Source: Lineus longissimus
Lineage: Eukaryota; Nemertea; Pilidiophora; Heteronemertea; Lineidae
Direction of reading: 5' to 3'
DNA length: 64,000 nucleotides
Assembly (NCBI RefSeq): GCF_910592395.1
Contig: NC_088317.1
Span: 7,938,001 to 8,002,000, forward strand
Position 1 is the first letter of the stretch; the number at the start of each line of letters is the position of its first letter. The notes under the pieces are model-generated. The model was not told where the DNA came from. It ran no database searches and saw nothing but the letters and a program-made list of their open reading frames with translations. This document shows positions 39,941 through 64,000 of the stretch, in pieces. Position numbers and translations under genes: made by a program.

Positions 39941-41293
39941 TTAAGCCAGCCACTTGAAATGACTAGCCGCAGACTCAGGAGCTACATCATTCCATGCTCT
40001 ACTTATAATGCCGAGTACATCCTGTAATGTAATTTTGCGGCAATTTCCGTCAGCCTCAGTTGCATCACATTTCCATAACTTCCAATACTTTCGCATTATA
40101 GCTTTAAATCCCCTCATAATAGTGAGATCTAACGGCTGAGCCAGCGATGTACACCTAGCAGGAATATTGTCTAACAGTATGCCTGCTTCAACCATTGGGT
40201 AACAGAAATCCTCTGCTTGATGCGGTCGGAATCTGTCAAAAAGCAGAAGGATGTCATTAAAGTCAAAATCGCCAATGTAAGGGAAAAGAACATCGTCCAA
40301 CCAATGTTGCAGTGTCTCTCCATTCTCCCAACCAGACCTCGAGGATGTGACCCGTACGTTATCTGGAATGTTGTTCAAATCTCTAATCTGACGCACGAAG
40401 CCCGGCTGCCTGAAAACAACATGAGCAGGCGGTTTTTCTCCGTTGGAGCCAACTGTCAATCCAACGGTGCACCCGAGTTTGGCATTTCCTCGCGATGTTT
40501 TCACATTTACATCTACTGTACCTCTGGTCTCAGCTGTATACATCGGAGGGAAGTCCAACTGAGCAAACGTTTCGTTAAAGTTCAAGAGCGTGTGGACATG
40601 GTTGTCAGCTACAGTTTGCCTAACGCCAGTCTGAAATTCTCTCACTCTCTGTGGTGCATCAGCCGGTACAGTGGTGGAATCTTTCGTTTTACGGCGGAAA
40701 ACAATCTTTTTCCGTTTCATAAAATTTGTAACCCAACCCACTGATGCAGAAAACTGGGACCTTTCAGGGCGACGTGCTGCAATGTCCTCAAGTTCATTGT
40801 GTGGGAGTTGGCCCCACCAGTTCTGAAATTCAATCGTTGCATCATTAACAATGTCCGACCGAGAAACGGGCAGGGCAATATTCCTCCGTTCTTGAAAATG
40901 CTGGTGCACGATATTCTCAACTTCCGGCCAACAACCATCATGGTCGGTTCTGACTCGCCGGCGTTCTGCATTTTCCTCCACTTGATCCGTCATTTCATCG
41001 ATGTTCTGTATCCATCTCCTGAGCGTTGTTGGGGATAGTCGATAGCGCCTAGCATACTCATTGACATTTAGAATGCGGCCATGTTCAATTGCTGTTTGGC
41101 AATCCAAGGCATGTCGCAGCCTGGCTTCAACAGTGTAACTGTTACATCGTCGAGGGAGACCAACTGCTGCAGCACCATTCTGCTGATCGGCATCATCATC
41201 ATCATCATCGTCATCATTGCCAGCATCCATCATTGACTGACACATGACAAAGAGCGAAAGCATCAGCAGTAACAACAACGTTGTGTTCCTCAT
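39941..41293 (-). CDS. Pogo-like transposase C (late C-terminal frameshift)
   Basis: A 450-codon minus-strand frame covering a whole DDE_1 transposase. Order: residues 1-20 a hydrophobic leader; then an Asp run; HTH about 51-100; second DNA-binding part about 115-210; catalytic core about 230-400. The first catalytic position is Asn240 (NFNET, codon AAC at 40574-40576). The second, Asp353, is in LLFDRF, and the third, Asp389, in LAQPLDL. The last residues (KWLA) arise from a one-base shift. In the shifted frame an acidic tail similar to that of A runs to TAA at 39816-39818. The likely true start is MMDAGN at 41233. Whether the Asn variant is active is unknown. Confidence 0.8.
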   Translation of the reverse strand: MRNTTLLLLLMLSLFVMCQSMMDAGNDDDDDDDDADQQNGAAAVGLPRRCNSYTVEARLRHALDCQTAIEHGRILNVNEYARRYRLSPTTLRRWIQNIDEMTDQVEENAERRRVRTDHDGCWPEVENIVHQHFQERRNIALPVSRSDIVNDATIEFQNWWGQLPHNELEDIAARRPERSQFSASVGWVTNFMKRKKIVFRRKTKDSTTVPADAPQRVREFQTGVRQTVADNHVHTLLNFNETFAQLDFPPMYTAETRGTVDVNVKTSRGNAKLGCTVGLTVGSNGEKPPAHVVFRQPGFVRQIRDLNNIPDNVRVTSSRSGWENGETLQHWLDDVLFPYIGDFDFNDILLLFDRFRPHQAEDFCYPMVEAGILLDNIPARCTSLAQPLDLTIMRGFKAIMRKYWKLWKCDATEADGNCRKITLQDVLGIISRAWNDVAPESAASHFKWLA

Positions 41294-41529
41294 GATTTGA
41301 ACTTTCTACAGGAATGACCAATATGATTGTTAGGGTAAAGGGCCTAGGAAATTACACAACTGCAATTGCCTTTCATACCAACCATTGATTGATAAAATTG
41401 GCCACAGAAGACCAGATCAAGAAATGAACATGTAATCAAAACTCTGTCATTTTCTTCATTAAAATGTGATTAGTAATAGGCCCTACATGGTCGTAAATCG
41501 ACAATATCCCATTCTGGGCCTCTATTAGT

Positions 41530-45745: not shown

Positions 45746-47101
45746 TCAGTCCATATTAATTTCGTCCCTTTCAACCTGTACGAATTCCAGACCCGGTTCC
45801 TCCTCTTCCTCATCCTCCTCAAGGTTGGGGAATGGCCCAGCTTCAATAGGGACCGGTCGAAATGCCATCTCAAAACCTTTTACAATCACGGCCCCATCAA
45901 CAGCAGCCCAAGCCTCACTTACAATGGTGACAACATCCATCAGCTGAATTGGTTCGCATCGGCCCTCTCTATCCGTGTGGTTCTTTTTCCATGCTTTCCA
46001 CCTCTTGCGCATATGGTTCTTGAGGGATCTCATGACAGTCAGGTCCAGGGGTTGGACAAGTGATGTACAACTGGCGGGAATGAAATCGAGGATTCCCCCA
46101 AGGTTCATAGTTTGCACACCGAAATTTTCCGTTCGATGAACCCGGTACCGATCTACCAGTAACAAAAACTGTTCAGCCTCTTCTGCGGTTAGATACGGTT
46201 GGAAGGCGTGTTCAAACCAGTGTTCGGCTGTCTCCTCCTTCATCCAACCTGTTGCTGATGAAGTTATGACCACGTTTTATGGTAGCTCTTGGTCCGCCAA
46301 GGCTGCAAGCTGCCTGACGAATCCTTTATTTGGGAAAGTCACGTGAGCCGCCACTTTTCCGCCGGTTGCAGTGATTGCAAGAGTAACTGTACATCCAAAT
46401 TTGGTGTTGGACCTTGAGGTGCGGATGTCCACGGACTTTGCTCCCTTTATGCTGCATGTGTACGTTGGTCGTAGCTCAAACAAGGCAAACGTTTGATCCA
46501 TGTTAAAGAGAAGTCTCATCGGAATTTCAAATCGGTCGATCGTGTCCGTGACGTTGTCTCTGAACACTTGCACACGATTGGCGGCATCAGCTGGGAGGGT
46601 GGTCGTATTTTTGTTAGCTTTCCGGAATGAAATTTTCTTCCGGTCCATAAAGTTCGCCACCCAGCCGTTCGAAGCGTGGAATTCGTGCATGACTGGTTGA
46701 GTCCGGATGAAATCTTGTCTATCGTCAGCGGGTAACGCGTGCCACCAGTCTTCGAAAATTGACATAGCTTTCTCTTGGACGTCTTCGACGGCGACAGGCA
46801 GCCTTTTTTCTCTGACCCCTCTAAACCCGACGATTAGCCTCTCTTCAACATCAGGCCAAAGACCAACGTTCCCCTCTTTTACGTGTCGGACTTTGCCTTT
46901 TCCTTCACCAGCTTTTTCTTCTAGTTCTTCCAAATTCCATTTCTGCATTGTTTGGACTGAGATTTCATAGTGTTCTGCAAATTCACGCATGTTGTTGACG
47001 GTTCCGTCCAACAGCGCAGCCTCAAGGTCCTGCAAGTAGGCTATTTTCTCTCTAACTGTATAACTTCTCCGGCGTTTTCGCAATGGCTCTTGACCATCCA
47101 T
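45746..47101 (-). pseudogene. Pogo-like transposase D (one in-frame stop)
   Basis: Start placed at ATG 47101 (MDGQEPLRKRRRSYTV); seven more codons upstream are open to 47125. One frame runs to 45746, interrupted only by TAA at 46277-46279, directly before NVVITSS, where E has LPDNVVVTSS. Domains: HTH (KIAYLQDLEA...VQTMQKWNLE), second DNA-binding part with WPDVEERL and ASNGWVANFMDRK, then the core with NMDQTF, LLLVDRYRVHR and LVQPLDLTVM, so all three catalytic Asp are kept. An acidic C-terminal tail is present (runs of Glu at about 45800). Confidence 0.85.
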
Positions 47102-47434: not shown

Positions 47435-47840
47435 TATATACACCATAATCCCAGATATAAGGTCTGGTAGGCATGGCCTGGCCTAAGTCATAGCTCCTCC
47501 CAGAAATGCCATTCAAATGATAATACTACACTAATTCACCATGGGTAGCCAAGTTGAATGCCTTGTCAAAATTTGAACATGTCAATGACCAGTTTTACTT
47601 CATGAATGATTGACACGCTCTTCAGGCTACCGTATCCTATTGATTAGGCAATAGGTGGTGATCACTATACAATGATTTCATTCCTCATTCTTTGATTTAT
47701 TGCTTTGCGTTAACTTTAAAGCAACATGCTTTGGAAAATTAATGCTTCCATTTCATTGGTAAAAAACGTTTAGTTAGGAAGGGCTTAAAACAACATCTAC
47801 ATGGAAGGAGACGTACAGATCAGTACAAATCGAAGACTCA
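47435..47840. other. Non-coding between elements D and E
   Basis: No gene. A small palindrome CCTATTGATTAGGCAATAGG lies at about 47636-47655. Confidence 0.5.
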
Positions 47841-49241
47841 ATGATGGCGGAAGGTGGGTTACCTGCCCGCCGCCGAAGCTATACAGTCAAAGAAAAACGT
47901 CAACATCCAACTGACTTCGAAAATGTCCTGGCTGCTGGAACGGTACAGACTGCTCGTGAATATGCCGAACACTACCGGATACCATTCGATACATTCCGAA
48001 AGTGGGAACCGCAACGAGCAAAGTTTGAAGAAACTGCAACGGACCACAAGAAAGCTCGCCGCAGACTACGGGATGATCATGATGGTTACTGGCCCGAAAT
48101 TGAACACATGCTACACGGGTGGTTTCTTGTCGAAAGGGCCAAAGGACTAACAGTTTCATGTTTAGAGATACAGGAGAAAGCTACCCATCTCTTTAACGAA
48201 TGGTGGGATGATCTGCCACAGGAAGAAAGGGACCGTCTCATCCAGACAAGATCAGAACACGTGCGCTTTCAAGCGTCGGTGGGATGGTGTGATCGCTTCA
48301 AGGAGAGGAAAAGGATTTCCTTTCGTAAGAAGAATAAAAACAGCACGCTTATCCCAGCCGATGCTCAAGCTCGCATCACCGTTCTACGAGATGAATTAAA
48401 CGCTCTTGTTGTTGTATATCACCTAAGGCCAGAGGAGCTATTCAATATGGACCAGACCTTTGTATTGTTTGATTGTCCTTGCCTCTACACCTGTAGCACG
48501 CGTGGTGAAATGAACATTGATGTACGTACTTCCAGAACAAACGTCAAATTAGGATGTACAGTCACGTTATGCATCTCGAGAGCGGGAGACAAGCTCAAGG
48601 CCCACATAACATTTCCTCGCAGAGGGTTTGTCGGACAGCTGGCAGAGCTAGAAGCAATGGACCTTCCAGATAATGTTGTTGTTACCTCATCTCAAACTGG
48701 ATGGATGCGCCTTGAAACTGCTCTGCACTGGATGACAGAAATCTTTGAACCACACGTTGAAGTGAATAGACAGAATGAGAACGTTGTACTTCTTGTCGAC
48801 AGATACCGGGTGCATCGGTCAGAGGACTTCGGTGTGGCAGTAACAAACCTTGGGGGTATCCTGCAATTCGTCCCTGCAGGCTGCACGTCACTGGCTCAGC
48901 CTTTGGATATCGCCGTCATGTACTCCTTCAAGTCAAAGATTAGAAGGCATTGGAAAAGGTGGAAAAAGGAGAGGACGGGCATGGATGGCCAATGCGATCC
49001 TATCAGACTACGAGATGTAGTAGCGATCATCAGCAACGCTTGCACTGATGTTTCACCGGATCGACCACGCCGTGGATTTGAGGTCCTGTTGGATCGCGAC
49101 GGGGCAGCAGAGGAAGCAGAGCCAGTGGACGCTGATCACCACGACGCTGATGAGAATAACAATGATGGGGATGCAGTGTTGTTAACGTTTGTGGACATGT
49201 CAGCCCACAGTGACAGTGAGGAGAATGGTAACGATGAGTAA
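47841..49241 (+). CDS. Pogo-like transposase E, intact frame
   Basis: A 466-codon uninterrupted frame from ATGATG at 47841. N-terminal HTH about residues 12-55 (RRSYTVKEKR...FDTFRKWE). Second DNA-binding part about 75-170 with DHDGYWPEIEHML and ASVGWCDRFKERKRISFRKK. DDE_1 core with Asp204 (FNMDQTF), Asp320 (LLVDRYRVHR) and Asp356 (LAQPLDIAVM). The C-terminus is an Asp/Glu/Asn-rich tail. All catalytic residues and full length are present, in contrast to its four broken neighbours. It should bind transposon ends and cut and rejoin DNA in the nucleus. I could not find TIRs around it, so it is either a transposon with degraded ends or a retained gene. Orientation is opposite to D. Confidence 0.85.
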   Translation: MMAEGGLPARRRSYTVKEKRQHPTDFENVLAAGTVQTAREYAEHYRIPFDTFRKWEPQRAKFEETATDHKKARRRLRDDHDGYWPEIEHMLHGWFLVERAKGLTVSCLEIQEKATHLFNEWWDDLPQEERDRLIQTRSEHVRFQASVGWCDRFKERKRISFRKKNKNSTLIPADAQARITVLRDELNALVVVYHLRPEELFNMDQTFVLFDCPCLYTCSTRGEMNIDVRTSRTNVKLGCTVTLCISRAGDKLKAHITFPRRGFVGQLAELEAMDLPDNVVVTSSQTGWMRLETALHWMTEIFEPHVEVNRQNENVVLLVDRYRVHRSEDFGVAVTNLGGILQFVPAGCTSLAQPLDIAVMYSFKSKIRRHWKRWKKERTGMDGQCDPIRLRDVVAIISNACTDVSPDRPRRGFEVLLDRDGAAEEAEPVDADHHDADENNNDGDAVLLTFVDMSAHSDSEENGNDE

Positions 49242-52577: not shown

Positions 52578-54938
52578 TTACACTGGAGACATAATCCGGA
52601 TAGCAGCCTCCAAAGCAGAGGGATGTCTCTGGAACCTGCTATCCCCAAGAAGCTCAGTGATCAATAACACCTTCTGGCGCCATTCCGGAACAGGACCAAC
52701 ATGCTGTGAAAAAACATACTGTCCATCCGGACGCAGCCAGTCCGGTGGCCGACGTCGTCGACTTGATCGACGAAGAGTCTCCGATTGCGCACTCTCTGAA
52801 TCTGAGTTCGACAGCGCGTCAGAATCCAGAGATGGCCCATCGGAAACCAAAGTTGACGGAATCGTCGCTGTGTCAGGAACATCCCTCAAACTAGCGGATT
52901 CTTCCTTAGTTGCCCCCTCCAACTTTTTCAAAGACCTTCTTGGCCTAGGAATAGGACGGGCCAACTGAGAGTCACCGCTAGGCCGACATAAAGGATGGTC
53001 GGACTGGCACGAAATCGGGAGCAGCATATTTCGGTGTAGACATTTGCGGGAACCGGACTCGGCCTCTACCACAAACACCGGAATATCTGGATTTGACTGA
53101 CAGGACACAGTATAAAACTCATCTTCCCACTTGTTGGCAAGCTTGTGTTTGCCACGGTCCCCAACACGGCGAACCAACACCTTGTCGCCGATATTAAGTG
53201 TAGCACCACGTACCCTAAGATCATAATGCTCCTTCTGCTTGATTCTGGAAGCTTCCAATTGCTTCTGAGCAAGGTCATATGCAATGGCTAGACGTGAACG
53301 TAAATCGTCAACAAAGGCGACCTTTGAACGTCGCTGAGCAGACGGGAGCAAAGTACCAAAATGAACATCAATGGGAAGACGAGGTTCCCTGCCAAACAGG
53401 AGAAAGTAAGGTGAAAACCCTGAAGAATCATGACAAGAAGAGTTGTACGCATGAACAAGACTAGGAACAAAGCGTTTCCAATCCTTCTTCTTATCCGTGG
53501 GGAGTGTGCCAAGCATATTTAATAAAGTGCGGTTAAAACGTTCACAAACTCCATTCCCCATAGGGTGATAAGGTGTTGTGCGCGACTTGGAAATATTCAT
53601 GAGCTTGCACAGCTCTGAAATGACCTTCCCAACAAAATTCTGACCCTGATCACTATGAAGACGCTCAGGGATACCATAATGGACGATATAATTGTCGAAG
53701 AGAACACGCGCTGTTGTAGCCGCGGTCTGACTTTTGGTAGGTATAGCCTGAGCATATTTAGAAAAATGGTCAGTGATGACTAGAATATTTTCATAACCAT
53801 GAGACGGTTCCAGAGATAAAAAGTCCATGCACACCAACTGCATGGGCTGAGTAGTGCAAATGCTGACAAGTGGAGCACGCTCCTGAAGCTGCGGTTGCTT
53901 CCTCTTAATACATGGAAGGCAATTCCGAACCCACTTGTCAACTTGAACTGACATTCCGGGCCAAAAAAACCGACGTTTAATAAAATCGAGAGTCCTATCT
54001 CGTCCAAGATGGCCTAAGTGATTGTGGAACCCTTCAATCACTTGGGGACGGAGACAGGATGGGACCAAGATCTGTTGAAAGCATTGACCATTGAACGTTA
54101 ACCTTTTACAGAGTAAACCGTCCAGTAAAATCAAGCTGTCCCAATATGAGCATAATTTTAAAAGTTCCTTGTCCTTGTCCTTCAATAAATCCCTACTCGG
54201 ACGCTGCTGGAATTTGACCCAATGATAAAGCTGAGAAATAACATGATCAGCCTGCTGTCCTGCCCTGATATCAACCTTAGGCCAAGGGGAATCAACAAGC
54301 AAAACCTCGGCCGATGACAAATCATTCGACACAGACATACATAATGATTCAACCAAACCATCTCCACCCTGTGCCGCCTGGCAAATGGCCTGAACACTCT
54401 CAATTCCAACTGTGGACCAAGGGAACCGTGACAAGGCATCTGCATCCACATTAGAAGCACCTGGCACATAAGATATGTCAAAATGAAAGGCAGAGAGGTC
54501 AGCCAACCAACGATGCCCTGTGGCATCTAGTTTAGCAGACGTAAGAACATAGGTTAGAGGGTTATTGTCAGTCTTGACATGAAAATAGTTGCCATACAAG
54601 TAATCAAAGAACTTCTCCGTCACAGCCCACTTCAATGCGAGAAATTCTAACTTGTGAGCTGGATAATTACGCTCCGCTTTGTTTAAACTCCGACTTGCAT
54701 AAGCAACAACCCGACGTTGGTTATTCTGATTTTGATACAAAATAGCTCCGAGACCTGAAGTGCTGGCATCAATGTGGAGTTCAAATGGAAGCGAAAAATC
54801 AGCAAAGCATAAGACAGGAGGACTGGACAACTCCTTTACTAGTGAGACAAAAGCAGACTCTTGCTTTTCTCCCCATGTCCAGGAAGAAGTGTTGGCAACT
54901 TTTGGTCTGCCCTTCTTGGGCGTAGTAGCCGGTAACAA
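52578..54938 (-). pseudogene. Pol part 2: RNase H and integrase
   Basis: 786 codons from the frameshift to a TAA. RNase H about residues 50-170 with Asp57 (HIDAST), Glu98, Asp124 (KTDNNPL) and Asp165. The integrase zinc domain is about 305-343 (HLGHLGRDRTLDF...CLPCIKRK). The integrase core has Asp372 (MDFLSLEPS), Asp430 (HSDQGQNF) and Glu467 (CERFNR). A C-terminal part follows with DKVLVRRVGDRGKHKLANKW, like a GPY-type module, then a Ser/Arg-rich tail. All catalytic residues are present. It is separated from RT only by a one-base deletion near 54945-54960. Confidence 0.85.
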
Positions 54939-54955
54939 CTCATTTAAAGGACGGG

Positions 54956-56800
54956 CTAACGTCGAAAGTTTCTTACAAACTTTCGGTAATAGCCTGCAAA
55001 CCCTAAAAATTTACGAACATCTTCAGCATTCTGAGGGGTGGGCCATGATCGAATGATTTTGACTTTATCAGGATCAGCCTCAACGCCCTTCGCTGAAACC
55101 AAGTGACCTAGATACTTTAATTTCTCCTTCAAGAATATACATTTACTGGGTTTTAACTTCAAACCACAGTCTCGCAGCCTCTGAAACACATTTTCCAACC
55201 TTTGAAGGTGTTCCTCCACCGTTGCCGAGAAAATAATGATATCATCTAGATACACAAGACACTCTTTTAAGTGCAAATCCTGTAAACAGCGCTCCATTAA
55301 CCTTTGAAAAGTACTGGGAGCATTTGTGAGGCCAAAAGGCATTAAATTCCACTCATAGAAACCAAGATTCCCAGCAGTAAAAGCTGTGCGACTTTTATGT
55401 TCCTCCTCCAACTCAACCTGCCAATATCCTGACCGTAAGTCTAACGACGAGAAGTATTTGGCCCCAGCAAGGCTGTCAAGAGTTTCATCTATCCGAGGCA
55501 TGGCATAAAAATCTCGGATAGTCCTTTTATTTAGCTGACGCATGTCACAACATAAACGCAAACTTCCATCCTTTTTCCGAACCAGAACCATGTTGGAGGC
55601 CCAAGGGCTTTTCGAATGACGGATAACCCCAGCCTGCAACATTTCCTCTAAGTGTTGTCTAACTTCTTCAAACATGGCGGGAGGAATCCGCCGATGACGC
55701 TGTTTGAAGGGAATGGGATCGTTTAACTCAATCCGGTGTTTGACTAGACTAGTTTTGCCAATTTCCAGATTGGATAGAGAAAATATGTCGTCATAACGAC
55801 CAAACAGACCTTCAAGCTTGGAGACGTCACTGCTCCCCAAATGAGACAAGTCAATTTCCTCGAGCACTTTCCTTCTATGAGCAGAGTCGCAAGCTGAACC
55901 TGGACCCAAACGATCCGACATAAGATTCATGGAATATAAGGTGGAAGATTCAGGAGTCATAGTACAATCAGACAACAGATCCTCTTTGTGGCAAACTGTA
56001 TTGCCCTGAGACAGCCTACAAAACACAGAACGACTAGGGAGAGTAACAGATTTCCTCACAGGGTTATATACACAAACTGCAACCCTCTCCTTCCGTTGCC
56101 CATGCATTTTGACCAGACTTGGAACAACTATAACATCGCCGGGCAATGAAATACCAGGAATACCTTCGGCAATAGCCGATGTAATTTTTCCAGTTGAAGT
56201 ACCATGACACATACCATGTACAGTTACCCTCGAATCTGGACCAATAACAATCGGCTTTGTTGTCTGAACTTGGCCTATAATTGGTTCAGCCTGTGACACC
56301 AAAGTTGAGAAAGCTAGTTTCCATTGCTTTGGCACAGTACCTACAGGTTGAAAGCGGGATAAAAGATTGGTTCCCACTAAGACAGGCACCCTGAGATTAT
56401 ACTTGGTATTGGGAACCACAAGTATAGGAACCAAGAGCTCATCATCCGAGAACGGACAGGTTACGGACGCTTCAACATAACCCAAGTACGGCAATGGGCT
56501 ACCATTGGCGCTTGAAATGTACAGAAGATCAGAAATAGGAAGAATAGGCAAAAGTGAGGCGAAGTGCTATTGGTAACAATGCTCAGAGATGGTACTTACC
56601 ATCGAGCCAGTATCCAATAGACATGACAAAATCTCGCCCTCCAATTTGATGAACGACTCGTTCGACTTGCCAACTAACCCCTTAGGCAAAGAAGAGGGTG
56701 CTAAACACTTGGAGCTCACAACAGGTCGGACCTTAGGAGGTTCTGGAGGTGGGGACCTCCTCCGATTACGATTAGGATTAGAACGAGCATGACAGCGACT
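54956..56800 (-). pseudogene. Pol part 1: protease and reverse transcriptase
   Basis: The Pol frame opens in -1 relative to Gag, carries the protease signature LLDTGSMVSTI (about 56600-56630), then is cut by TAG at 56567-56569. It continues in the same frame for 531 codons to a stop at 54956. RT motifs: NMVLVRKKDGSLRLCCDMR about residues 320-338, SSLDLRSGYWQ with Asp371, LMPFGLTNAPSTFQ, and the catalytic YLDDIIIF at 434-441, followed by thumb motifs and FLGFAGYYRKF. Shortly after, a one-base deletion shifts into the RNase H frame. RT copies element RNA into DNA in cytoplasmic particles. Confidence 0.85.
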
Positions 56801-56832
56801 AAGGTGCTCCTTGGGACTAATAGGCTCGCTTC

Positions 56833-58509
56833 TCAGTGTCTGTCCCCCGACACTGGAGCATTGTCTTTTAAATCCTTCCCATTTGACTTAGGGCACCTTC
56901 GACTGAAATGACCCTTCTCGCCACAGTTGAAACAAACAACATTTTGCTGTCGTTTCTGTTTATGTGCCTCAATGGCAGTCAACTTGCCCTGCAATCGCTG
57001 AACTTGGTCAGTGAGAGACTTGACGACATCAGACTCAGGACCAGAACCGACAGTGACTTGACTAACATGTACTTGAGAAGAACTATTAGCTGACAAAGAC
57101 ACTGGTAGAGCTGGAGCAGCGAACTCCTGCTCCAAAACCCGAGCCTGCAACAACAAGGAGTGATATGGCATAAAAGAATCATAAAGATGGCGGAGACCAA
57201 GCCGAACCCTCTCATCCCTCAATCCAGACCAGAATTTACTACGCAGCATCTCTGGCCCGGTGACAGGGACGGCATCTCCTAGCAGATTCAATATATCCTC
57301 AAGACGACAACCCCAAGAGGCGACTGATTCGCCAACCCCTTGGGCTGCAACATAAAATTTCTCCAACAGCTTCTCCGCTGGCAGGACATTACCAAACATG
57401 ATATCAAATTTATGGAGGATTTCCTCGACAGTGACATCTTCACCCATGTGCAAGAGAACATCCGATGCAGGATACTTCAACGATTGACGAATGGCCTGCA
57501 GCACAACGCGTGGCTGCTCAGCCTTTTGCAAGCATTTCACCTCATATCGCCACTGATTGAAAGACACAGAATTCTTAACATCCTTTGAGCCGGAGAATGT
57601 AGCAATACGCGGCTTACCATATGTAGAAACTTGAATCGGCTGAGAATTGTACCAAGGCTGAGATAAAGGCAAGCCTGGGGAATTGACTGGTTGTGCCTGG
57701 TAACCCGACCAAGGTTGCGACTTGGGCAGAGTTGAAGTCTGCCCTTAAGACACAGGAAAGACAGGAGCTGACCACTGCTGAGGAAGATAAGAAGTTCTCT
57801 TATGCGAAGAAATGCCAGGTTGTGACAAAGACCGTGGCTGTGAGGCAGGATGCCCTGGATTTACCATCGAGTATGCTATGTCAGGCAGAGAAGACACAGG
57901 TTGTGACGCAAATGCATGCTCCTCGTAGCAAGAAACGACAGGCTGTGAGCACGCTGGTTGTGACAAAGACCGTGGTGAAGAATACTGGTTGTGACTAGTA
58001 GTCAAGGGAGGTTGAGATAGAACATTTTGATGACCAACAGGCTGCGACCAAGACAAAGGATTACGAAGGATATGTTGTGACGAAGAAGAATGATGAAACG
58101 TTGATGGAACAGGTTGTGAACTAACTCTGTCCTGAGGCAATAGCGATGTTGGATAGGGCTTAATGAAAAGTTTACGATGGGGGAGACCATGTGAAGGACC
58201 ACCCGAGCCCACTGGACCATGAGATTCCGAGGGGCCATCAGCAAATGAAACCCTTCTCCTTGACCCACCGGAACCATCACGGTCAAACACCCCACAACCT
58301 TCCATGGAATCGCCTCTTGGTGTACTATAAATGGAACCTTCTTCGGCATCTTCTAACGTAAGGTCTTGTAGTAATGACGGAGTGTCTTCTTGCATTAATG
58401 TAGTCATAATTTTGTTTTTTATAGCTGGGGATAACAAACGAAGGTCCCTAAGTACCATCAGGGCCCTCCTTTCATCTCCCCCTTCCGATTTGATTGATGG
58501 TGATTCCAT
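56833..58509 (-). pseudogene. Gag with PNMA-like capsid and zinc knuckle (one stop)
   Basis: One minus-strand frame from ATG 58509 to a stop at 56833, interrupted by TAA at 57745-57747. The first part (254 codons) is an N-terminal helical segment (ALMVLRDLRLLSPAIKNKI) and a long disordered linker with many SQP motifs. The second part has a capsid-like domain (ATFSGSKDVKNSVSFNQW...RQSLKYPASDVLLHMG), similar in style to PNMA/ZCCHC12-type Gag proteins. A CCHC knuckle CFNCGEKGHFSRRC lies about 30 residues before the end. The same frame is kept on both sides of the stop, so a single substitution explains it. Confidence 0.75.
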
Positions 58510-59103
58510 TCCGATGATGTATGAAATTTATTTGGGATGGTTGAATTTTTTTTTTTTTTTTAATTTACTTTGACCTGTAATAAAAAGGGAATTTGAAATA
58601 GACTAAGAATATATGTATTGTGGTGGTAGGAATCTAGGTAATTCTCAGCTATTTTAACAAAAGCCCTTACAGGCCTTTTTGTCTCAAATTAGCTTAGAAA
58701 CCCCTAAGAACCAGACACCACAATACATATATTCTATCATTCATTAGATTCCCAGTGAAGCGTTGCAATGAAATGGTCAGTGAAATGGTAAGGGAATACT
58801 AGAGTTCAATGGATTAATGTAATCATGACTTACTGTATTCCAACAGAAAGTACACGTCAATAGCTTTCCAAGGATACATCATTGCAAATATCCATTGAGA
58901 AATGGCAGAGAAATGAACCCTTGAAGTTCGCACATCTTGACAGTCCCAGCGTATTCCAATAAATGCTGTAGGCCTACAAGACAGCTGTTACAGTGATTAA
59001 TCATTGTTGCTTGAATCTATTGAAAATATTGTTGACAGAGTCTGCATGTACATGGTAACATATGTTACCAAACAATACTCACGTCCCAAAGTATTACAAG
59101 GGT
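58510..59103. other. Non-coding, with a small hairpin element
   Basis: Upstream side of gypsy element 2; no LTR or primer-binding site identified. A T-run is at about 58547-58561. See the hairpin at 58606-58735. Confidence 0.45.
58606..58735. repeat. Hairpin element, 20-bp inverted arms
   Basis: AGAATATATGTATTGTGGTG at 58606-58625 is exactly reverse-complemented at 58716-58735, with 90 bp between. MITE-like, or a remnant of an LTR boundary. No coding. Confidence 0.75.
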
Positions 59104-59231
59104 CTATTGTTCGTTAATGCGTTTATCCGACAGAATTTCGAGACATTATTTTAACGACGCAAAAATAATTTTCAGCGCTGAAAATATTTTCCGAAAATTC
59201 TGTCGGATAAACGCATTAAGACACAATAGGC
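59104..59231. mobile_element. Small MITE-like hairpin
   Basis: Arms around TTAATGCGTTTATCCGACAG (59114-59133) and its reverse complement ending 59219, with CTATTGT/ACAATAG extending outward and further short inverted repeats inside. About 125 bp. Confidence 0.75.
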
Positions 59232-59248
59232 CTTTTCATGTCTTTGAC

Positions 59249-59343
59249 AAGCAAAAATAATTAATGACTGCAACATCTGATATGGCCATTGTAATTTGCA
59301 AGCACAAATAATTAATGACTGCAACATCTGATATGGCCATTGT
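59249..59343. repeat. 51-bp tandem duplication
   Basis: ATTAATGACTGCAACATCTG and ATATGGCCATTGTA repeat with a 51-bp period (about 1.8 copies), between the MITE-like hairpin and the gene cassette. Confidence 0.8.
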
Positions 59344-59507: not shown

Positions 59508-60899
59508 ATGTATTATCCAATAGCAAATCAACATAAAAGTAAATTCACCTATGACTTCTTTAATTTAGAAGTAACTGTTAATACTAATAACTTCTTCCGC
59601 CTACAAGAAACTAAGATAACACCTGGGTTTTTGAGCCTGAAAAATAAGAAAGACTGTCTGCTACTGGAAAAGAATCCATTATCGTTTTATCAGAACCAAT
59701 TTAACATGGCTGTTTGGTTTGCTACAACAGGTTGTGGTATTTCAATAGACGATCACTTGAATCACAGTGACCCATTGTTAAGGTCAATTTACAGGTTTCA
59801 TGTTTACTATCAAATATTGAAGATCATGAAGAATCTAGAGATACCAATTCCAGGTGAAAGTGATTTTAATGAGACAAACAATAACATTAACCGTAGGAAA
59901 CTAGGAGGGTTATTGAGTGAATTTGGTTTAAAAGACGAGTACGATTTCTCGGTGTTTGAAAATAACGGTGGTTGGAGGTCATGGAGTGTACCGGATTACA
60001 ACCCGAACATAACTGATCCCGGATATTACATCAATGATTCTAAAATCAATTTCTTCCTCATGCAAGTTCATGAAAATAGAATGCCACCGATGTTCAGTAA
60101 AGACTGGGATGCTGGAATGGCTAATTTCAAATATCCAGATATTTTCATCAAGGATCATGTCAGGAGACACAAGAATGTATTTGATGTAATTACACAAAAT
60201 GAATGTCAAACCTATCAACAATTCATGATATTTAAATCAAATGGTTTCTCTAATCCTGGAATAGAGAGGTTAAATGATACAATAAGAACATATGTTTACT
60301 GTATTCTGGGTGCTCAGGCGTTGACCAGAACACCAATAATTGGAGTACCGGGTACAGAATTGGATGCACAGAAGGAATTTAACAAACTATTAAAGGACTC
60401 GATTAATCAACATCCTGATATTCCCACTTCAATTCAAAGATACCAAAAAGCAGTGAGTGACACTCATACAAGACTAGATTATGTAATAGCACCAGGATTG
60501 TATGTCATAGGATCAAATATGGTACTCGTTATTGGTAAGCTGGATAACTACAATAATAACATTTTAATAGCACCAAAAAATGCTAAACCCGGTAAGAATG
60601 ACATTAACCACAAAAAGACCTTACCACCACCACTGATGGAAGGAAATAGTTCTAAGAAAATAAGAGTTAAGAGTAGTGTTGGTACATCAATGACGGACTT
60701 CGTCCTGAGAGCAAAGCTCGAGACCAGTCATAAACCAAATAGTAATGTTGATACACCAAAAACAACTGAAACCTCAAAGAATACTCCTACTACTACTAAA
60801 CTTGACACCAAAGTTGAGAAGGTGGATGATACTCATGAAACAATTAAATTCATGCTTTACTCAGTTGTTGGTACATTGATTGTTTTTATGGTTAGATAA
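59508..60899 (+). CDS. Cassette protein 1: 463 aa, C-terminal membrane anchor, unknown family
   Basis: An intact plus-strand frame, first ATG after AT-rich DNA. The main body (about 1-375) is hydrophilic and globular-looking, rich in Asn, Tyr and Phe, with well-spaced Trp and Cys (for example MAVWFATTGCGISIDDHLNH about 67-86). No catalytic motif is recognised. Residues about 396-405 (TDFVLRAKLE) are encoded by a copy of the double-hairpin repeat. A Thr/Lys-rich disordered stretch follows. The last 17 or so residues (FMLYSVVGTLIVFMVR) form one transmembrane segment, so a tail-anchored membrane protein is predicted. The next gene starts 10 bp after the stop, suggesting joint transcription. It could be a structural protein of an integrated virus-like element; that is inference. 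Confidence 0.8.
   Translation: MYYPIANQHKSKFTYDFFNLEVTVNTNNFFRLQETKITPGFLSLKNKKDCLLLEKNPLSFYQNQFNMAVWFATTGCGISIDDHLNHSDPLLRSIYRFHVYYQILKIMKNLEIPIPGESDFNETNNNINRRKLGGLLSEFGLKDEYDFSVFENNGGWRSWSVPDYNPNITDPGYYINDSKINFFLMQVHENRMPPMFSKDWDAGMANFKYPDIFIKDHVRRHKNVFDVITQNECQTYQQFMIFKSNGFSNPGIERLNDTIRTYVYCILGAQALTRTPIIGVPGTELDAQKEFNKLLKDSINQHPDIPTSIQRYQKAVSDTHTRLDYVIAPGLYVIGSNMVLVIGKLDNYNNNILIAPKNAKPGKNDINHKKTLPPPLMEGNSSKKIRVKSSVGTSMTDFVLRAKLETSHKPNSNVDTPKTTETSKNTPTTTKLDTKVEKVDDTHETIKFMLYSVVGTLIVFMVR
60695..60722 (+). repeat. Double-hairpin repeat, copy 1
   Basis: GGAC-TTC-GTCC then TGA and GAGC-AAA-GCTC then GAG. It lies in frame inside gene 1 and adds DFVLRAKLE. Confidence 0.85.
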
Positions 60900-60909
60900 A
60901 TAAGTAATT

Positions 60910-60955
60910 ATGGCTGAAGGAGGTGAAAATTATGAAATGGATGATTACGATTCAC

Positions 60956-60987
<32 letters not shown>

Positions 60988-62400
60988 GGAACTTTTGAAC
61001 AAATTCTAGAAATGAGAAAGAATCTCCCTTATCCAGATGACGGCACAACATACAACACAGGAGGTGGAAATCTTACTGATGAAACTTCATTCAGTACACC
61101 AGAAAGAGTAAGAGGTATTGTCCCTGAATTGATGGAAAAGGAGTTAAGTTACGATACAATAGAGGATAAACTTGATACAGCATTGGGAGGATCAAACTGG
61201 AATTATGACAAGAAAAAATTGAGTAATCTTTCACCACACATTAGTTACAATGGAAACAAACTTTATTACAATCCGAGAAATTCTGAATTTGATTTGATAA
61301 AAGATAAACGAGGAAACAAAAATTTATTTGAATATACTGATAAAAATGGAGAAAAGATAAAGTTAATTCCTTTAACTAAGGATAATGGAAGCTTCTATGC
61401 TGAAGGCACATTAAAGACTAAGTTTGGTACTAGATTTGCTGACATGATTAAAGATATGATTGCACCTGACCCACCTGTAAGTCAACCTACATTAGTAACC
61501 CCTGAAACACAGGCAGTAATTAATGAGGTAAACAGTTCAAACCAACCAATAGATAAACTGATAGATTCTAATGATGATGTACTTAAAACACTGGGTTTTA
61601 CTGAATCTGCCTTGAGAGAACTTAGAGGGTTAAAACAGGCTGGTGATGATCTAGCTGCAGTAAAGAGGGATAAGGACATGCAAATAGAGGAATTAGAAAA
61701 TAAACTTCATAATTTAACAAGAGACTATGTAAAGTCTGTAGAAGAAGATGCTAAAGATACGGGGGAGTTGAAAAAGCAAATAGATGAACTAAATGACAAA
61801 TTGTATGAGGAACAGTCAAAGGTATTGAGGTTAGACAATGACAGGGAGTCACAAACTAGAAGAATTAAACGTTTAATTGTTGATGTTCTAAAGAAACCAG
61901 ATTCAACTATTCCTCTGAAGGACAGAATAAAGTTACTTTTTAAGACATATGGTGTAACCATTAGCGCCATAATAACAGCTGTTGTAATGACATTTACAAC
62001 TCTAGGTCTTAGTATCAGTAGTGCTTTAAGTGGTGCCACTAAATCTGTAAAACCAACTCCAGGACCAGGACCATCTCCAGGACCAGACCCAACTCCAGGA
62101 CCTACACCAGAACCAGGACCAAAACCAAAACCATCAATACCAGATAAAGTAAAAGAAGGTCTCAAGAAGTTTGCTGAATGGCTAAAAGAACTAGCCAAGA
62201 AATCAGCTGCGGCTTTACCGGGAATCATCGGTTCTATCGTATCATTTCTCCTGAAAACAATTGGTGCAGTTGTTGGCTTTCTAGCCGAACATCTGATCAT
62301 AGCAGTTATTGCTATTGTGAGCTCCATAATTTATGGTTTAATTGGGGGTGTTAAAGCCTTAAAATCACGTAAAACAGTAAAATCACGTAAAAGGTCTTAG
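60910..62400 (+). CDS. Cassette protein 2: 496 aa, coiled coil, Pro-rich, multi-span membrane protein
   Basis: An intact frame starting 10 bp after gene 1. Order: acidic start with a Ser run coded by a TCA microsatellite (residues about 17-27); a folded-looking part to about 190; a long coiled coil about 235-315 (LRGLKQAGDDLAAVKRDKDM onward); a hydrophobic span about 348-372; a Gly/Pro repeat (PGPGPSPGPDPTPGPTPEPG) about 381-410; two further hydrophobic stretches about 433-477; and a basic tail ending KSRKRS. This suggests a membrane-bound fibre or anchor protein, with parts on both sides of a membrane. No homologue recognised. Sharing an AT-rich composition and tight spacing with gene 1, it probably belongs to the same unit. 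Confidence 0.8.
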
Positions 62401-62448
62401 GTGACCTTCTATCAAAACAATGTTTAAAAAAATAATTATTATGTAAAT

Positions 62449-62895
62449 ATGAATAAATACATCTCATTAAAAGACTATTATTCTAGTGAGTCGGACTTCG
62501 TCCTGAGAGCAGAGCTCGAGTGGAACAATGAGAATCTTAAAGGATACATTCGTCCTAGGGTTATGGATCGAGCAGAGCTCTCTGGACGAAGTCCGACTAG
62601 GACAAGGTCCAGAGAGCAAAGCTCGACTCGAGCAGAGCTCTCAGGACGAAGTCTGACTGAGACACACAAAGTAGTCCTGCCAAGAATGAAAGAATATGAC
62701 GTCAGTACCAACACTAATGCTCAATTCTGCCGTAATTGTAAAAGGTGGACACTTTTTGAGTATCAAAAAAACTTGAATTCAGCAAGGTACGCAGCTAAAA
62801 CTGTGAAGTATCAATTCTGCACCAATTGCAATTCGACTACTTACGACGATGATTTTAAAACTCTTGAGATCAATATTGACAACAAGACACGTTAA
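62449..62895 (+). CDS. Cassette protein 3: 148 aa with Cys4 zinc ribbon
   Basis: ATG at 62449, 48 bp after gene 2. Residues about 15-66 are largely made of double-hairpin repeats (SDFVLRAELE, then RAELSGRSPTR and RAELSGRSL). The C-terminal half has two CxxC pairs, Cys94/Cys97 (FCRNCKRWT) and Cys124/Cys127 (FCTNCNST), about 26 residues apart, predicting a zinc ribbon. Such ribbons occur in transcription-related and late-gene factors of DNA viruses, but this alone does not give the function. It ends with TAA at 62893-62895; the next frame continues in the same phase immediately after the stop. Confidence 0.65.
   Translation: MNKYISLKDYYSSESDFVLRAELEWNNENLKGYIRPRVMDRAELSGRSPTRTRSREQSSTRAELSGRSLTETHKVVLPRMKEYDVSTNTNAQFCRNCKRWTLFEYQKNLNSARYAAKTVKYQFCTNCNSTTYDDDFKTLEINIDNKTR
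62493..62520 (+). repeat. Double-hairpin repeat, copy 2
   Basis: GGAC-TTC-GTCC / GAGC-AGA-GCTC, in frame at the start of gene 3. Confidence 0.85.
62568..62594 (-). repeat. Double-hairpin repeat, copy 3 (inverted)
   Basis: Reverse orientation (GGACGAAGTCC on the plus strand), but the second hairpin keeps GAGC-AGA-GCTC on the plus strand instead of the expected GAGC-TCT-GCTC. The second hairpin is therefore flipped relative to the first. Confidence 0.8.
62600..62625 (+). repeat. Double-hairpin repeat, copy 4 (variant loop)
   Basis: GGAC-AAG-GTCC then GAGC-AAA-GCTC. Stems are retained; the first loop is changed. Confidence 0.7.
62627..62653 (-). repeat. Double-hairpin repeat, copy 5 (inverted)
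   Basis: Like copy 3: CTCGAGCAGAGCTCTCAGGA then CGAAGTC. The second hairpin is flipped, and the outer base of the first stem is mutated. Confidence 0.75.
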
Positions 62896-63483
62896 TTTGA
62901 CAGTATTCTAAGGAAACTTGGATGGAGTCGGCTGTCCGAATCGGCAGTTAAGTATTTAAAGGACTTTGTGGAGGGGTATTTACAGTGCTACTTTTCAAGT
63001 CACAGAAAATGTCTTAGTAAGCAGAGATATGAAAGTACTCTTCAGTCAGCCCTAAAAATGGGTATTAACACTCTCCCCTCTAAGTTATGTAACCAAGGGT
63101 TACATGGTGAAGCCATGCTTTTTAAATTTCACTGTGGGGAATATGATTGGTTTCTTGCCATTGAATTTATTAACAGGGCAATTGGTAAACCGCAATTAAC
63201 CGATGAGAATATCACTGACCTTAGACTAGTGTACTATGCTTTCCTTAGATTTCTGCATTACTGTGGTGTCAAGGTCACCATTAACTACAAGGTATTTTTA
63301 CACCAAGCCTTTAAAACGCTGAAAATTGATTATGTAATATTTACACCTTTTTTAACCAACAAGGAGCGAGTAAATGATTTGGAGAGATTATGGTATGATT
63401 TCACTCAAAGTATTTTCTTCCAGAATTACAAGGTTGAGAGGAATATGACCAGGATATTGACAAGCAGTTTGACGTTTTACTGA
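62896..63483 (+). pseudogene. Cassette protein 4: unknown, no clear start, frame lesions
   Basis: Open directly after the stop of gene 3 in the same phase. The first in-frame ATG is only at 63058; a GTG is at 62968. Yet the sequence from 62896 on already looks coding (ILRKLGWSRLSESAVKYLKD). It reads as a compact alpha/beta-like protein with LHGEAMLFKFHCGEYDW and LRLVYYAFLRFLHYCGV, no family recognised. The frame stops at 63483. The -1 frame from 63438 to 63677 has a more protein-like composition and runs through the repeat array. So either two lesions affect this gene, or readthrough and frameshifting are used. Confidence 0.5.
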
Positions 63484-63677
63484 GTGCCAGTGCAGGTCGA
63501 GACATTAACTGCATCAGTAATATTAAGTTTACACCAGCCGGACTTCGTCCTGAGAGCACAGCTCGAGCCGGACTTCGTCCTGAGAGCACAGCTCGAGCCG
63601 GACTTCGTCCTGAGAGCATAGCTCGAGCCGGACTTCGTCCTGAGAGCACAGCTCGAGCTAGTGTTAAGATGCAATAA
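63438..63677 (+). CDS. Frame continuing cassette gene 4 through the repeat array
   Basis: Open in the -1 phase relative to the end of gene 4, from just after a TGA to TAA at 63675-63677. It begins EEYDQDIDKQFDVLLSASAG. It has no start codon, so it probably is the displaced C-terminus of gene 4. The array is read here as four repeats of GLRPESTARA (third copy GLRPESIARA). Confidence 0.4.
   Translation, partial: EEYDQDIDKQFDVLLSASAGRDINCISNIKFTPAGLRPESTARAGLRPESTARAGLRPESIARAGLRPESTARASVKMQ
63540..63657 (+). repeat. Tandem array of four double-hairpin repeats
   Basis: Units at 63540, 63570, 63600 and 63630 with an exact 30-bp period, 28 bp of unit plus CC. All have GGAC-TTC-GTCC and GAGC-ANA-GCTC. 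The second loop is ACA in three and ATA in the third. There are no spacers, so it is not a CRISPR array. Confidence 0.95.
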
Positions 63678-63728
63678 AGTTGTGAAAACAGCATTTTGCA
63701 CTTAACAGTCATTTTTCCATAATTTTAA

Positions 63729-64000
63729 ATGAATAATCAGCAAATGAATAGTCAGACATCTGCAGTGATTGAACAACAGATGAAACAGATTGGTGTTATG
63801 AGTCCTGAGAGCTTAGCTCGAGTTGGGGCTTCTAACCAACAGAACACTGGTAGTTACCAACAAAACAGAACTAACTTTCAACAGAACTGCTCTACAAATC
63901 AACAAGTTTCAAACAAGCAGTTGAATAGTTCAAATTTTGTTAATCCTAGTCAAGGAATAGTTAATCCCAGTCAAGGAATAGTCAATTCTAGTTGCCAACT
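63729..64000 (+). CDS. Cassette protein 5: Gln/Asn-rich, runs off the window
   Basis: ATG at 63729, open to the end of the window (90 codons seen). It is very rich in Gln, Asn and Ser and contains a short repeat NPSQGIV about residues 74-87, a prion-like or disordered composition. Residues about 25-30 (PESLAR) come from a partial double-hairpin repeat in a different reading frame from that used in gene 1. The gap after the preceding frame is about 50 bp. Start chosen as the first ATG; the true length is unknown. Confidence 0.6.
   Translation, partial: MNNQQMNSQTSAVIEQQMKQIGVMSPESLARVGASNQQNTGSYQQNRTNFQQNCSTNQQVSNKQLNSSNFVNPSQGIVNPSQGIVNSSCQ
63802..63822 (+). repeat. Double-hairpin repeat, copy 10 (partial)
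   Basis: GTCCTGAGAGCTTAGCTCGA. The first arm of hairpin 1 is lost; hairpin 2 is intact with a TTA loop. Confidence 0.75.

What the first reader, a model, noticed from the sequence alone, without database searches (positions are those of the whole stretch)
59508..64000. Compact cassette of unfamiliar genes, virus- or plasmid-like, next to animal transposons
At least five same-strand genes without introns are spaced by 10, 48, 0, about 50 bases, in AT-rich DNA unlike the rest of the window. Two are long and intact (463 and 496 codons) and have membrane anchors, one is a zinc ribbon, one is Q/N-rich. I recognise no family. A Maverick/Polinton-type or other integrated DNA virus, or a linear plasmid-like element, would give this layout, but no polymerase, integrase, ATPase or capsid gene is in view.
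Basis: partly seen in the sequence, partly recalled or inferred. Interest (0 to 1): 0.88.

Follow-up and report, generated by a model that had tools for sequence, protein, structure and literature searches.

The report
Animal virus-transposon riddled with 27-base inserts
The odd gene cassette is the left part of a large virus-like animal transposon (a Polinton, or Maverick), and several of its genes carry copies of a tiny 27-base double-hairpin sequence that appears to jump into them while keeping the protein readable.

Summary
The cassette is real and is the left part of a 24,854-bp Polinton/Maverick (adintovirus-like) provirus (C10:7996606-8021459). It has ~260-bp inverted ends, a 6-bp target duplication, PolB, rve integrase with chromodomain, A32 ATPase and weakly supported capsid genes. 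At least 92 ORF1 copies lie in the genome. This copy is decayed: PolB is interrupted, and ORF3+ORF4 are one gene in 12 of 17 comparable copies.

The surprise lies inside the genes. A 27-bp double hairpin with a 3-bp ANN duplication sits at about 30 places in this element; 16 of 29 site clusters have both filled and empty copies. Net gain is usually 30 bp, so frames survive. Of 372 units in 24 pieces, 230 lie inside genes, in all six phases. In the one phase where the central TGA would stop translation 0 of 49 keep it, against 153 of 181 elsewhere. Integrase frames cluster at 373, 383-384 and 393-394 aa. The 89 exact copies placed (of 766) all lie in this element. Analogues: Rickettsia palindromic elements, yeast mitochondrial GC clusters. 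How the units move is unknown.

The parts
58600..58605 (.). 6-bp target-site duplication AGACTA (left copy; right copy follows C10:8021459)
58606..58867 (+). left terminal inverted repeat of the Polinton (partner L011:1200-1459); 258 identities, 2 mismatches, 2 gaps
59508..60899 (+). ORF1, 463 aa, mostly helical with a C-terminal hydrophobic helix; conserved family, no Pfam domain or convincing fold match
60691..60723 (+). 27-bp double-hairpin unit (60694-60720) with flanking triplets, inside ORF1, in frame (peptide DFVLRAKLE)
60910..62400 (+). ORF2, 496 aa, coiled coil plus C-terminal hydrophobic helices; relatives in Ptychodera, Mytilus and Oculina records
62449..62895 (+). ORF3, 148 aa with a zinc-ribbon-like CxxC/CxxC pair; carries four units; one stretch with ORF4 in 12 of 17 comparable copies
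62492..62518 (+). double-hairpin unit, in frame in ORF3 (DFVLRAELE); TSD AGT; 9 pieces filled and 8 empty at this site
62567..62655 (.). block of three units (- + -) in ORF3 (RAELSGRSP / RSREQSS / RAELSGRS)
62896..63483 (+). ORF4, same frame as ORF3 after its stop; downstream part of the same gene
63539..63657 (+). tandem array of four units at 30-bp period between ORF4 and ORF5; one to ten units in other copies
63729..64000 (+). ORF5, Q/N-rich, 273 aa in all (runs past the window), carries a unit (SPESLARVG)
63794..63820 (+). diverged double-hairpin unit inside ORF5 (21/28 over the 29-bp scan)

Best explanation
Shown: the cassette is the left part of an integrated Polinton/Maverick, present in at least 92 similar copies in its host genome. 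The element carries a 27-bp double hairpin at about 30 places. Comparison with empty copies shows that it was inserted with duplication of a 3-bp target (ANN, mostly AGT/AGC/ATT/ACT), so that each insertion adds 30 bp = 10 codons and keeps the frame. Well supported but indirect: the units inside genes are translated, not skipped, because the one phase that would meet a stop has lost it; and the units are mobile. Inferred: units move while the viral DNA is replicating. Hairpins exposed in single-stranded replication intermediates are probably copied into a new place, either at a 3-nt staggered break or by template switching on a 3-nt match, because the units placed so far lie in element copies and not in host DNA. 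ORF1 and ORF2 are probably virion or membrane proteins of these viruses, judged only from their hydrophobic helices and their place away from the replication genes. That the host is an animal is inferred from the named relatives of ORF2. Confidence: about 0.97 for a Polinton, 0.9 for mobile frame-keeping units, 0.35 for the replication-linked route.
For: Polinton: TIRs, 6-bp TSD, PolB_2, rve+Chromo, Pox_A32; 92 ORF1 matches scored of 757 first-look candidates, 81 without a stop. Units: 32 in the element at 18/28 (31 places, one matched on both strands) against 0.5 expected and 0 in the other 58.6 kb of the window. 632 filled/empty pairs: 356 differ by 30 bp, 80 by 60, 617 by a multiple of 3. 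231 of 372 units have identical 3-bp flanks for a 27-bp core, against a mean of 59.5 (max 83) when right flanks are dealt anew; cores of 25, 26, 28 or 29 give 0-16. Stems co-vary: the 17/23 pair is GC in 306 and AT in 63 of 372; 24 exact double hairpins of this geometry in the element against 0.6 expected. Coding: 0 of 230 in-gene units bring a stop; TGA kept in 0 of 49 in the stop phase and 153 of 181 in the other five, Fisher 2e-30. Integrase frames 373 / 383-384 / 393-394 aa in 29 / 65 / 6 of 107 scored matches, 7 other lengths; one allele read carries 10 extra residues within the rve core. 89 of 89 exact units in 23 fetched loci lie in element copies or fragments.
Against: No jump was observed and no mobilising enzyme is identified. 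Copies share ancestry, so 372 units are not independent; the independent number is nearer 29 site clusters, 13 of which had no empty partner. 141 of 372 units lack a perfect 3-bp duplication, and with a 27-bp core shifted by 1-2 bases 37-133 still match. 15 of 632 pairs differ by a length that is not a multiple of 3. Only 89 of 766 exact units in the genome were placed, chosen because they head the listing (C1-C3 and part of C4), so confinement to the element is sampled. Units sharing a flank triplet are more alike (0.872 against 0.798, 0 of 500 shuffles), which fits template switching but also plain descent. Stop-less units also occur in other phases (28 of 181) and outside genes (36 of 142), so part of the TGA pattern may come from a stop-less subfamily. 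The tool scored only part of the candidates, so genome copy numbers are lower bounds.
Confidence: 0.85

Rival explanations
1. The repeats do not move by themselves; they are shuffled among element copies by gene conversion or unequal recombination, as ordinary dispersed repeats.
For: Copies are much alike (ORF1 88-100% aa identity), so recombination between them is likely; tandem arrays of 1-10 units look like unequal exchange.
Against: Filled and empty sites differ by exactly 30 or 60 bp in 436 of 632 pairs; the unit sits at 29 site clusters, in both orientations and all six phases; the 3-bp duplication is specific to a 27-bp core.
Confidence: 0.1
2. The units are bypassed by the ribosome, like the short inserts in Magnusiomyces mitochondrial genes, so they cost nothing at the protein level.
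For: Similar kind of small insert in coding genes (PMC5009743, passages); phase-0 insertion, where the duplicated triplet is a codon, is over-represented (17 of 27 site/phase classes, p 0.002).
Against: The central TGA is kept in 0 of 49 units in the phase where it would be read as a stop but in 153 of 181 elsewhere, which bypassing would not require; the other five phases read open.
Confidence: 0.05
3. The units are functional parts of the virus (for example packaging signals or RNA structures) multiplied by selection, not selfish DNA.
For: Stems are kept by paired changes and the double-hairpin geometry is specific.
Against: Number and place vary between copies (4-31 units in 20 loci of 8-10 kb). 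ORF2, matched in 18 pieces, holds no unit, as expected of tolerated insertions. 42 of 43 ORF1 homologues show no unit peptide by motif search, the exception being a 99% identical copy. ATPase and capsid genes were seen in one copy only, so they say little.
Confidence: 0.15
4. A host transposase (3-bp duplications are recalled for several DNA transposon groups) moves the units as extremely short MITEs.
For: 3-bp duplication; Tc5-like DDE_1 transposases lie in the same window.
Against: 89 of 89 placed units lie in the element rather than in host DNA; 27 bp is, by general knowledge, too short for two transposase-bound ends; the two hairpins are not a terminal inverted repeat.
Confidence: 0.1
5. 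The segment is a linear plasmid or contaminant joined to the host contig by mistake.
Against: TIRs, 6-bp TSD and at least 92 ORF1 copies on many contigs.
Confidence: 0.01

Closest known systems
Polintons/Mavericks (adintoviruses)
   Same: PolB, rve integrase with C-terminal chromodomain, A32 ATPase, TIRs and 6-bp TSD; the adintovirus definition in PMC11071296 (passages) names an rve integrase with chromodomain
   Different: ORF1, ORF2 and ORF3-4 match no Pfam model above cut-off; no maturation protease was found; genes carry 27-bp mobile units
Rickettsia palindromic elements (RPE)
   Same: small palindromic repeat found fused in frame inside protein genes and translated (PMC2229807, passages)
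   Different: RPEs are 105-146 bp in bacteria with TSD unknown (PMC2229807); here 27 bp plus a 3-bp TSD, in a Polinton of a eukaryote
GC clusters of yeast mitochondrial DNA
   Same: short hairpin-forming mobile units flanked by AG or ACT direct repeats, presence/absence polymorphic, mechanism unsettled (PMC4478555, passages and section 10)
   Different: mitochondrial, 42 nt for GC42, in introns and intergenic DNA in that survey; here nuclear, inside genes and frame-keeping
Double-hairpin / repetitive hairpin elements of Allomyces and sponge mtDNA
   Same: double hairpins are among them, some inside rns, rnl, nad5 (PMC2800124, passages)
   Different: Allomyces elements lack flanking duplications (PMC2800124); mitochondrial, not in a virus
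Bypassed inserts (byps) of Magnusiomyces mitochondria
   Same: 81 short inserts in protein genes (PMC5009743, passages); the 27-55 nt size is recalled
   Different: those disrupt frames and are skipped by the ribosome; here in frame and, by the TGA test, translated

Membership tests
Polinton/Maverick | protein-primed-type family-B DNA polymerase | tested here: met
   DNA_pol_B_2 26.1 bits (cut-off 25.8) in L009:4829-5482; protein priming itself not tested
Polinton/Maverick | retroviral-type (rve) integrase | tested here: met
   rve 45.3 bits and Chromo 32.8 bits, both above cut-off
Polinton/Maverick | A32/FtsK-type ATPase | tested here: met
   Pox_A32 55.6 bits, cut-off 22.8
Polinton/Maverick | terminal inverted repeats and 6-bp target-site duplication | tested here: met
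Polinton/Maverick | double jelly-roll major capsid and minor capsid proteins | tested here: inconclusive
   Capsid_N 16.8 bits, below cut-off 24; no PDB sequence match; not folded
Polinton/Maverick | adenovirus-type maturation protease | tested here: inconclusive
   no protease among the ORFs scanned with Pfam; shorter ORFs were not scanned
Rickettsia palindromic element | palindromic repeat fused in frame in protein genes | tested here: met
Rickettsia palindromic element | 105-146 bp, Rickettsia genome | tested here: not met
   27 bp, 391-Mb eukaryote assembly; exact 27-mer pattern not found in GTDB genomes
Yeast mitochondrial GC cluster | hairpin unit flanked by AG/ACT direct repeats | tested here: met
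   AGT and ACT are among the six duplicated triplets
Yeast mitochondrial GC cluster | location in mitochondrial DNA | tested here: not met
   units lie on contigs of 19-29 Mb
Byp (translationally bypassed insert) | insert skipped by the ribosome | tested here: inconclusive
   indirect sequence test speaks against it; no proteome data

The most novel reading that the evidence does not exclude
A 27-bp double hairpin is a hyperparasite of an animal DNA virus/transposon. It would be among the smallest mobile DNAs with target-site duplications, it moves only inside viral DNA, and its size plus duplication (30 bp) together with five open phases make it nearly harmless to reading frames. It adds ten-residue peptides to the virus's own enzymes, even within the integrase core, and it moves by a hairpin-dependent route without transposase-type ends.
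Probability: 0.6. Interest if true: 0.9.

Novelty: new variant of a known kind. Interest (0 to 1): 0.82.

Why it matters
Protein-coding mobile palindromes are known from Rickettsia and Wolbachia, and hairpin mobile units from mitochondria; how such tiny units move is an open question. Here the same behaviour appears in a nuclear Polinton with at least 92 copies, 16 site clusters with both filled and empty alleles, and a natural reading-frame test. That makes gain, loss, target choice and protein tolerance directly measurable. It also suggests a way by which viral proteins gain short extra segments. Separately, ORF1 and ORF2 define protein families, likely of animal Polintons, whose folds could not be matched.

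Tried and rejected

No paper describing short mobile palindromes in Polinton genes was seen in the listings; subscription papers are not held. Papers seen as passages: PMC4478555 (also section 10), PMC2800124, PMC2229807, PMC5009743, PMC4028283, PMC11071296, PMC2635572. PMC6649704: listing only.
Full report
What was claimed and what is there. ORF1 (59508-60899), ORF2 (60910-62400), ORF3 (62449-62895), an open frame to 63483 and a Q/N-rich frame from 63729 are all present. To the left lie a Ty3/gypsy-type retrotransposon (RT, RNase H, integrase) and Tc5-like DDE_1 transposases.

The rest of the element. The window is G000:C10:7938001-8002000 of a 391-Mb, 30-contig assembly. Downstream DNA was read in three overlapping 10-kb pieces. 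It holds a PolB split in this copy by a change of frame and a stop (L009:3184-7069). It also holds an rve integrase with chromodomain (L010:2847-4001, minus), an A32-type ATPase (L010:4006-4626), a capsid-like ORF (L010:6240-7280, minus; Capsid_N 16.8 bits, below its cut-off of 24) and several unassigned ORFs. The left end at 58606 is repeated inverted at L011:1200-1459 (258 identities, 2 mismatches, 2 gaps), and both ends are flanked by AGACTA. The element is thus 24,854 bp with a 6-bp target duplication, as in Polintons/Mavericks (that six is their rule is recalled, not from a call).

Copy number and decay. A search of the genome with ORF1 scored 92 of 757 candidates: 97-100% identical and full length or nearly so, 81 without an internal stop (counted by hand from the listing). 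With the integrase, 107 of 1264 candidates were scored, 96 without a stop (counted by hand). Among the 23 loci, PolB pieces a and b read on in one frame without a stop in 12 of the 17 where both were matched, pieces b and c in 13 of 15, and ORF3 and ORF4 in 12 of 17. So intact versions of these stretches exist, and ORF3 plus ORF4 are one gene. ORF1 differences between 7 full-length, ungapped copies and the window copy give a crude pN/pS of 0.43.

ORF1 and ORF2. ORF1 has 43 homologues; the 35 aligned are 27-67% identical, with invariant residues. Its model (pLDDT 80) matches nothing convincing. ORF2 has 130 homologues, including proteins named from Ptychodera flava, Mytilus edulis and Oculina patagonica, from which I infer an animal host; its model is a long coiled coil with C-terminal helices. 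They are not obviously PY or PX, which Krupovic and colleagues identify as major capsid and penton (PMC4028283, passages); no direct comparison was made. A virion or membrane role is inference only.

The repeat. CGGACTTCGTCCTGAGAGCANAGCTCGAG-like copies give 32 matches in the element at 18/28 or better, 31 places (expected 0.5, Markov; 0 in the other 58.6 kb of the window). The exact 18-mer core occurs 380+386 times in the genome, against 0+0 for the pattern read backwards. I fetched 20 loci at clusters of the core and 3 at single copies on C1-C4. All 23 are copies or fragments of this element, and 89 of 89 exact cores in them lie within 1.5 kb of an element gene match. The other ~677 cores, apart from those in the window's own copy, were not placed.

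The repeat is an insertion. In 24 sequence pieces there are 372 units (19/28 or better) in 254 blocks. For 176 blocks another piece has an empty site. Of 632 filled/empty pairs, 356 differ by 30 bp and 80 by 60 bp; 617 by a multiple of 3, while 15 do not. Example: TGAGTGGAA becomes TG-AGT-[27 bp]-AGT-GGAA. A 27-bp core gives identical 3-bp flanks in 231 of 372 units, against 59.5 on average (at most 83 in 1000) when right flanks are dealt anew. Cores of 25, 26, 28 and 29 bp give 0-16, and a 27-bp core shifted by 1 or 2 bases 37-133. The duplicated triplets, read with the unit, all begin with A: AGT 79, AGC 47, ATT 38, ACT 34, AGA 26, AAT 7. The base after the unit is A in 370 of 372 but the third base before it in 307 of 372, so the last A may belong to a 28-bp unit with a 2-bp duplication. 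Blocks fall into 29 site clusters, 16 with both filled and empty pieces, e.g. 9 filled/8 empty in ORF3, 7/10 and 1/10 in PolB; some clusters merge neighbouring sites.

Structure. Each unit folds as two 4-bp stems with 3-nt loops, 3 nt apart, on both strands for two of the three variants tried (for the third the reverse strand folds otherwise). Stem positions change together: the 17/23 pair is GC in 306 and AT in 63 of 372; the 1/11 pair is paired in 317 of 372. Exact double hairpins of this geometry number 24 in the element against 0.6 expected; seven neighbouring geometries give 0-3, and one with a 5-nt spacer gives 9, which is the distance between neighbouring units of an array; the first 58.6 kb of the window has 2.

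Frame. 230 of 372 units lie inside a gene match that holds at least 120 nt outside units: PolB 82, ORF3 47, L009:1600-2166 43, ORF5 27, L009:8244-9023 16, ORF1 14, integrase 1. All six phases occur. Only one phase reads the central TGA as a stop; there 0 of 49 units keep it (CGA 28, AGA 14, GGA 6, AGC 1), against 153 of 181 in the other five phases; no in-gene unit brings a stop (Fisher 2e-30). The units are related by descent, so the p-value overstates; at site level the stop phase has 9 of 27 site/phase classes, all without TGA. Stop-less units also occur in other phases (28 of 181) and outside gene matches (36 of 142), so a stop-less subfamily may have been favoured rather than each copy mutated in place. 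Phase 0 is over-represented (17 of 27, p 0.002), unexplained. ORF2, matched in 18 pieces, holds no unit; ATPase and capsid-like genes were seen in one copy only.

Integrase alleles. Open frames of the 107 scored integrase matches are 373 aa in 29, 383-384 in 65, 393-394 in 6 and other lengths in 7 (counted by hand). One 373 and one 393 copy were read. From 373 to 383 exactly 30 bp are added: a diverged double hairpin (CAAC-TTC-GTTG, TTA, GGGAC-AAA-GTCCC) nested in an older unit. From 383 to 393, ten residues NRAMLSGQSP are added within the rve core. For the other copies only lengths are known.

Relatives. Of 43 homologous proteins of ORF1, 42 show no unit peptide by motif search (some are partial), and the one with it is the 99% identical P0001; the 120 listed ORF2 relatives have none either, but ORF2 has no unit here. 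The ORF3 homologue P0164 lacks the unit at the matching place. The unit is absent, by exact pattern, from IMG/VR and GTDB genomes. So it looks recent and confined to this lineage, as far as these collections show; other animal genomes were not searched.

How it may work. Shown: insertion of 27 bp plus a 3-bp duplication, in both orientations and all phases, kept structure, kept reading. Inferred: movement in replicating viral DNA. Reasons: sampled confinement to the element, hairpins likely to form in displaced single strands, and arrays built by insertion beside an existing unit. Units that share a triplet resemble each other more (0.872 against 0.798), as template switching on a 3-nt match predicts, but shared descent predicts it too. 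A staggered-cut route with an unknown enzyme is equally open. The Endonuclease_7-like stretch in PolB (below cut-off) is only a lead.

Known kinds. Rickettsia palindromic elements are protein-coding palindromes of 105-146 bp (PMC2229807); yeast GC clusters are hairpin units flanked by AG or ACT (PMC4478555); sponge and Allomyces hairpin elements (PMC2800124) and bypassed Magnusiomyces inserts (PMC5009743) are further analogues. It works like the first two but fails their defining size or location, so it is filed as a new variant. The Polinton itself is a new member of a known kind.

Noticed in passing
window 52581-57744 (-): Ty3/gypsy-type retrotransposon with RT, RNase H and integrase, and a PNMA/CCHC gag-like ORF, whose ORFs end about 0.9 kb from the Polinton's left end.
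   Followed up: partly
window 37656-38507, 39944-41305, 45749-46276, 47778-49238: Several DDE_1 (two with Tc5 HTH) transposase ORFs in both orientations; one (47778-49238) is open over 487 aa stop to stop.
   Followed up: partly
window 59087-59246: A 66-bp imperfect inverted repeat with a 28-bp gap between the left TIR and ORF1.
   Followed up: no
window 59239-59340: A 51-bp tandem duplication, 90% identical, upstream of ORF1.
   Followed up: no
L031:8545-8815: The ORF4/ORF5 spacer array has ten tandem units at 30-bp period in this copy, against four in the window copy.
   Followed up: partly
P0044, P0164, P0165: The nearest ORF2 and both ORF3 homologues are filed under Bartonella sp. assemblies, probably animal DNA contamination; they may show another host with a close relative of this Polinton.
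   Followed up: no
L010:5104-5135 and L009:2241-2269: The last residues of the mCP-like ORF and of the 318-aa ORF are unit-encoded, so units also form new protein ends.
   Followed up: no
phase table: In-gene units prefer phase 0 (17 of 27 site/phase classes), including the phase that needs loss of the stop; the reason is unknown.
   Followed up: partly
L010 2473-2823 (-): 116-aa ORF with a five-residue (VNQYP-type) repeat and CxxC pairs; no Pfam match, identity unknown.
   Followed up: no
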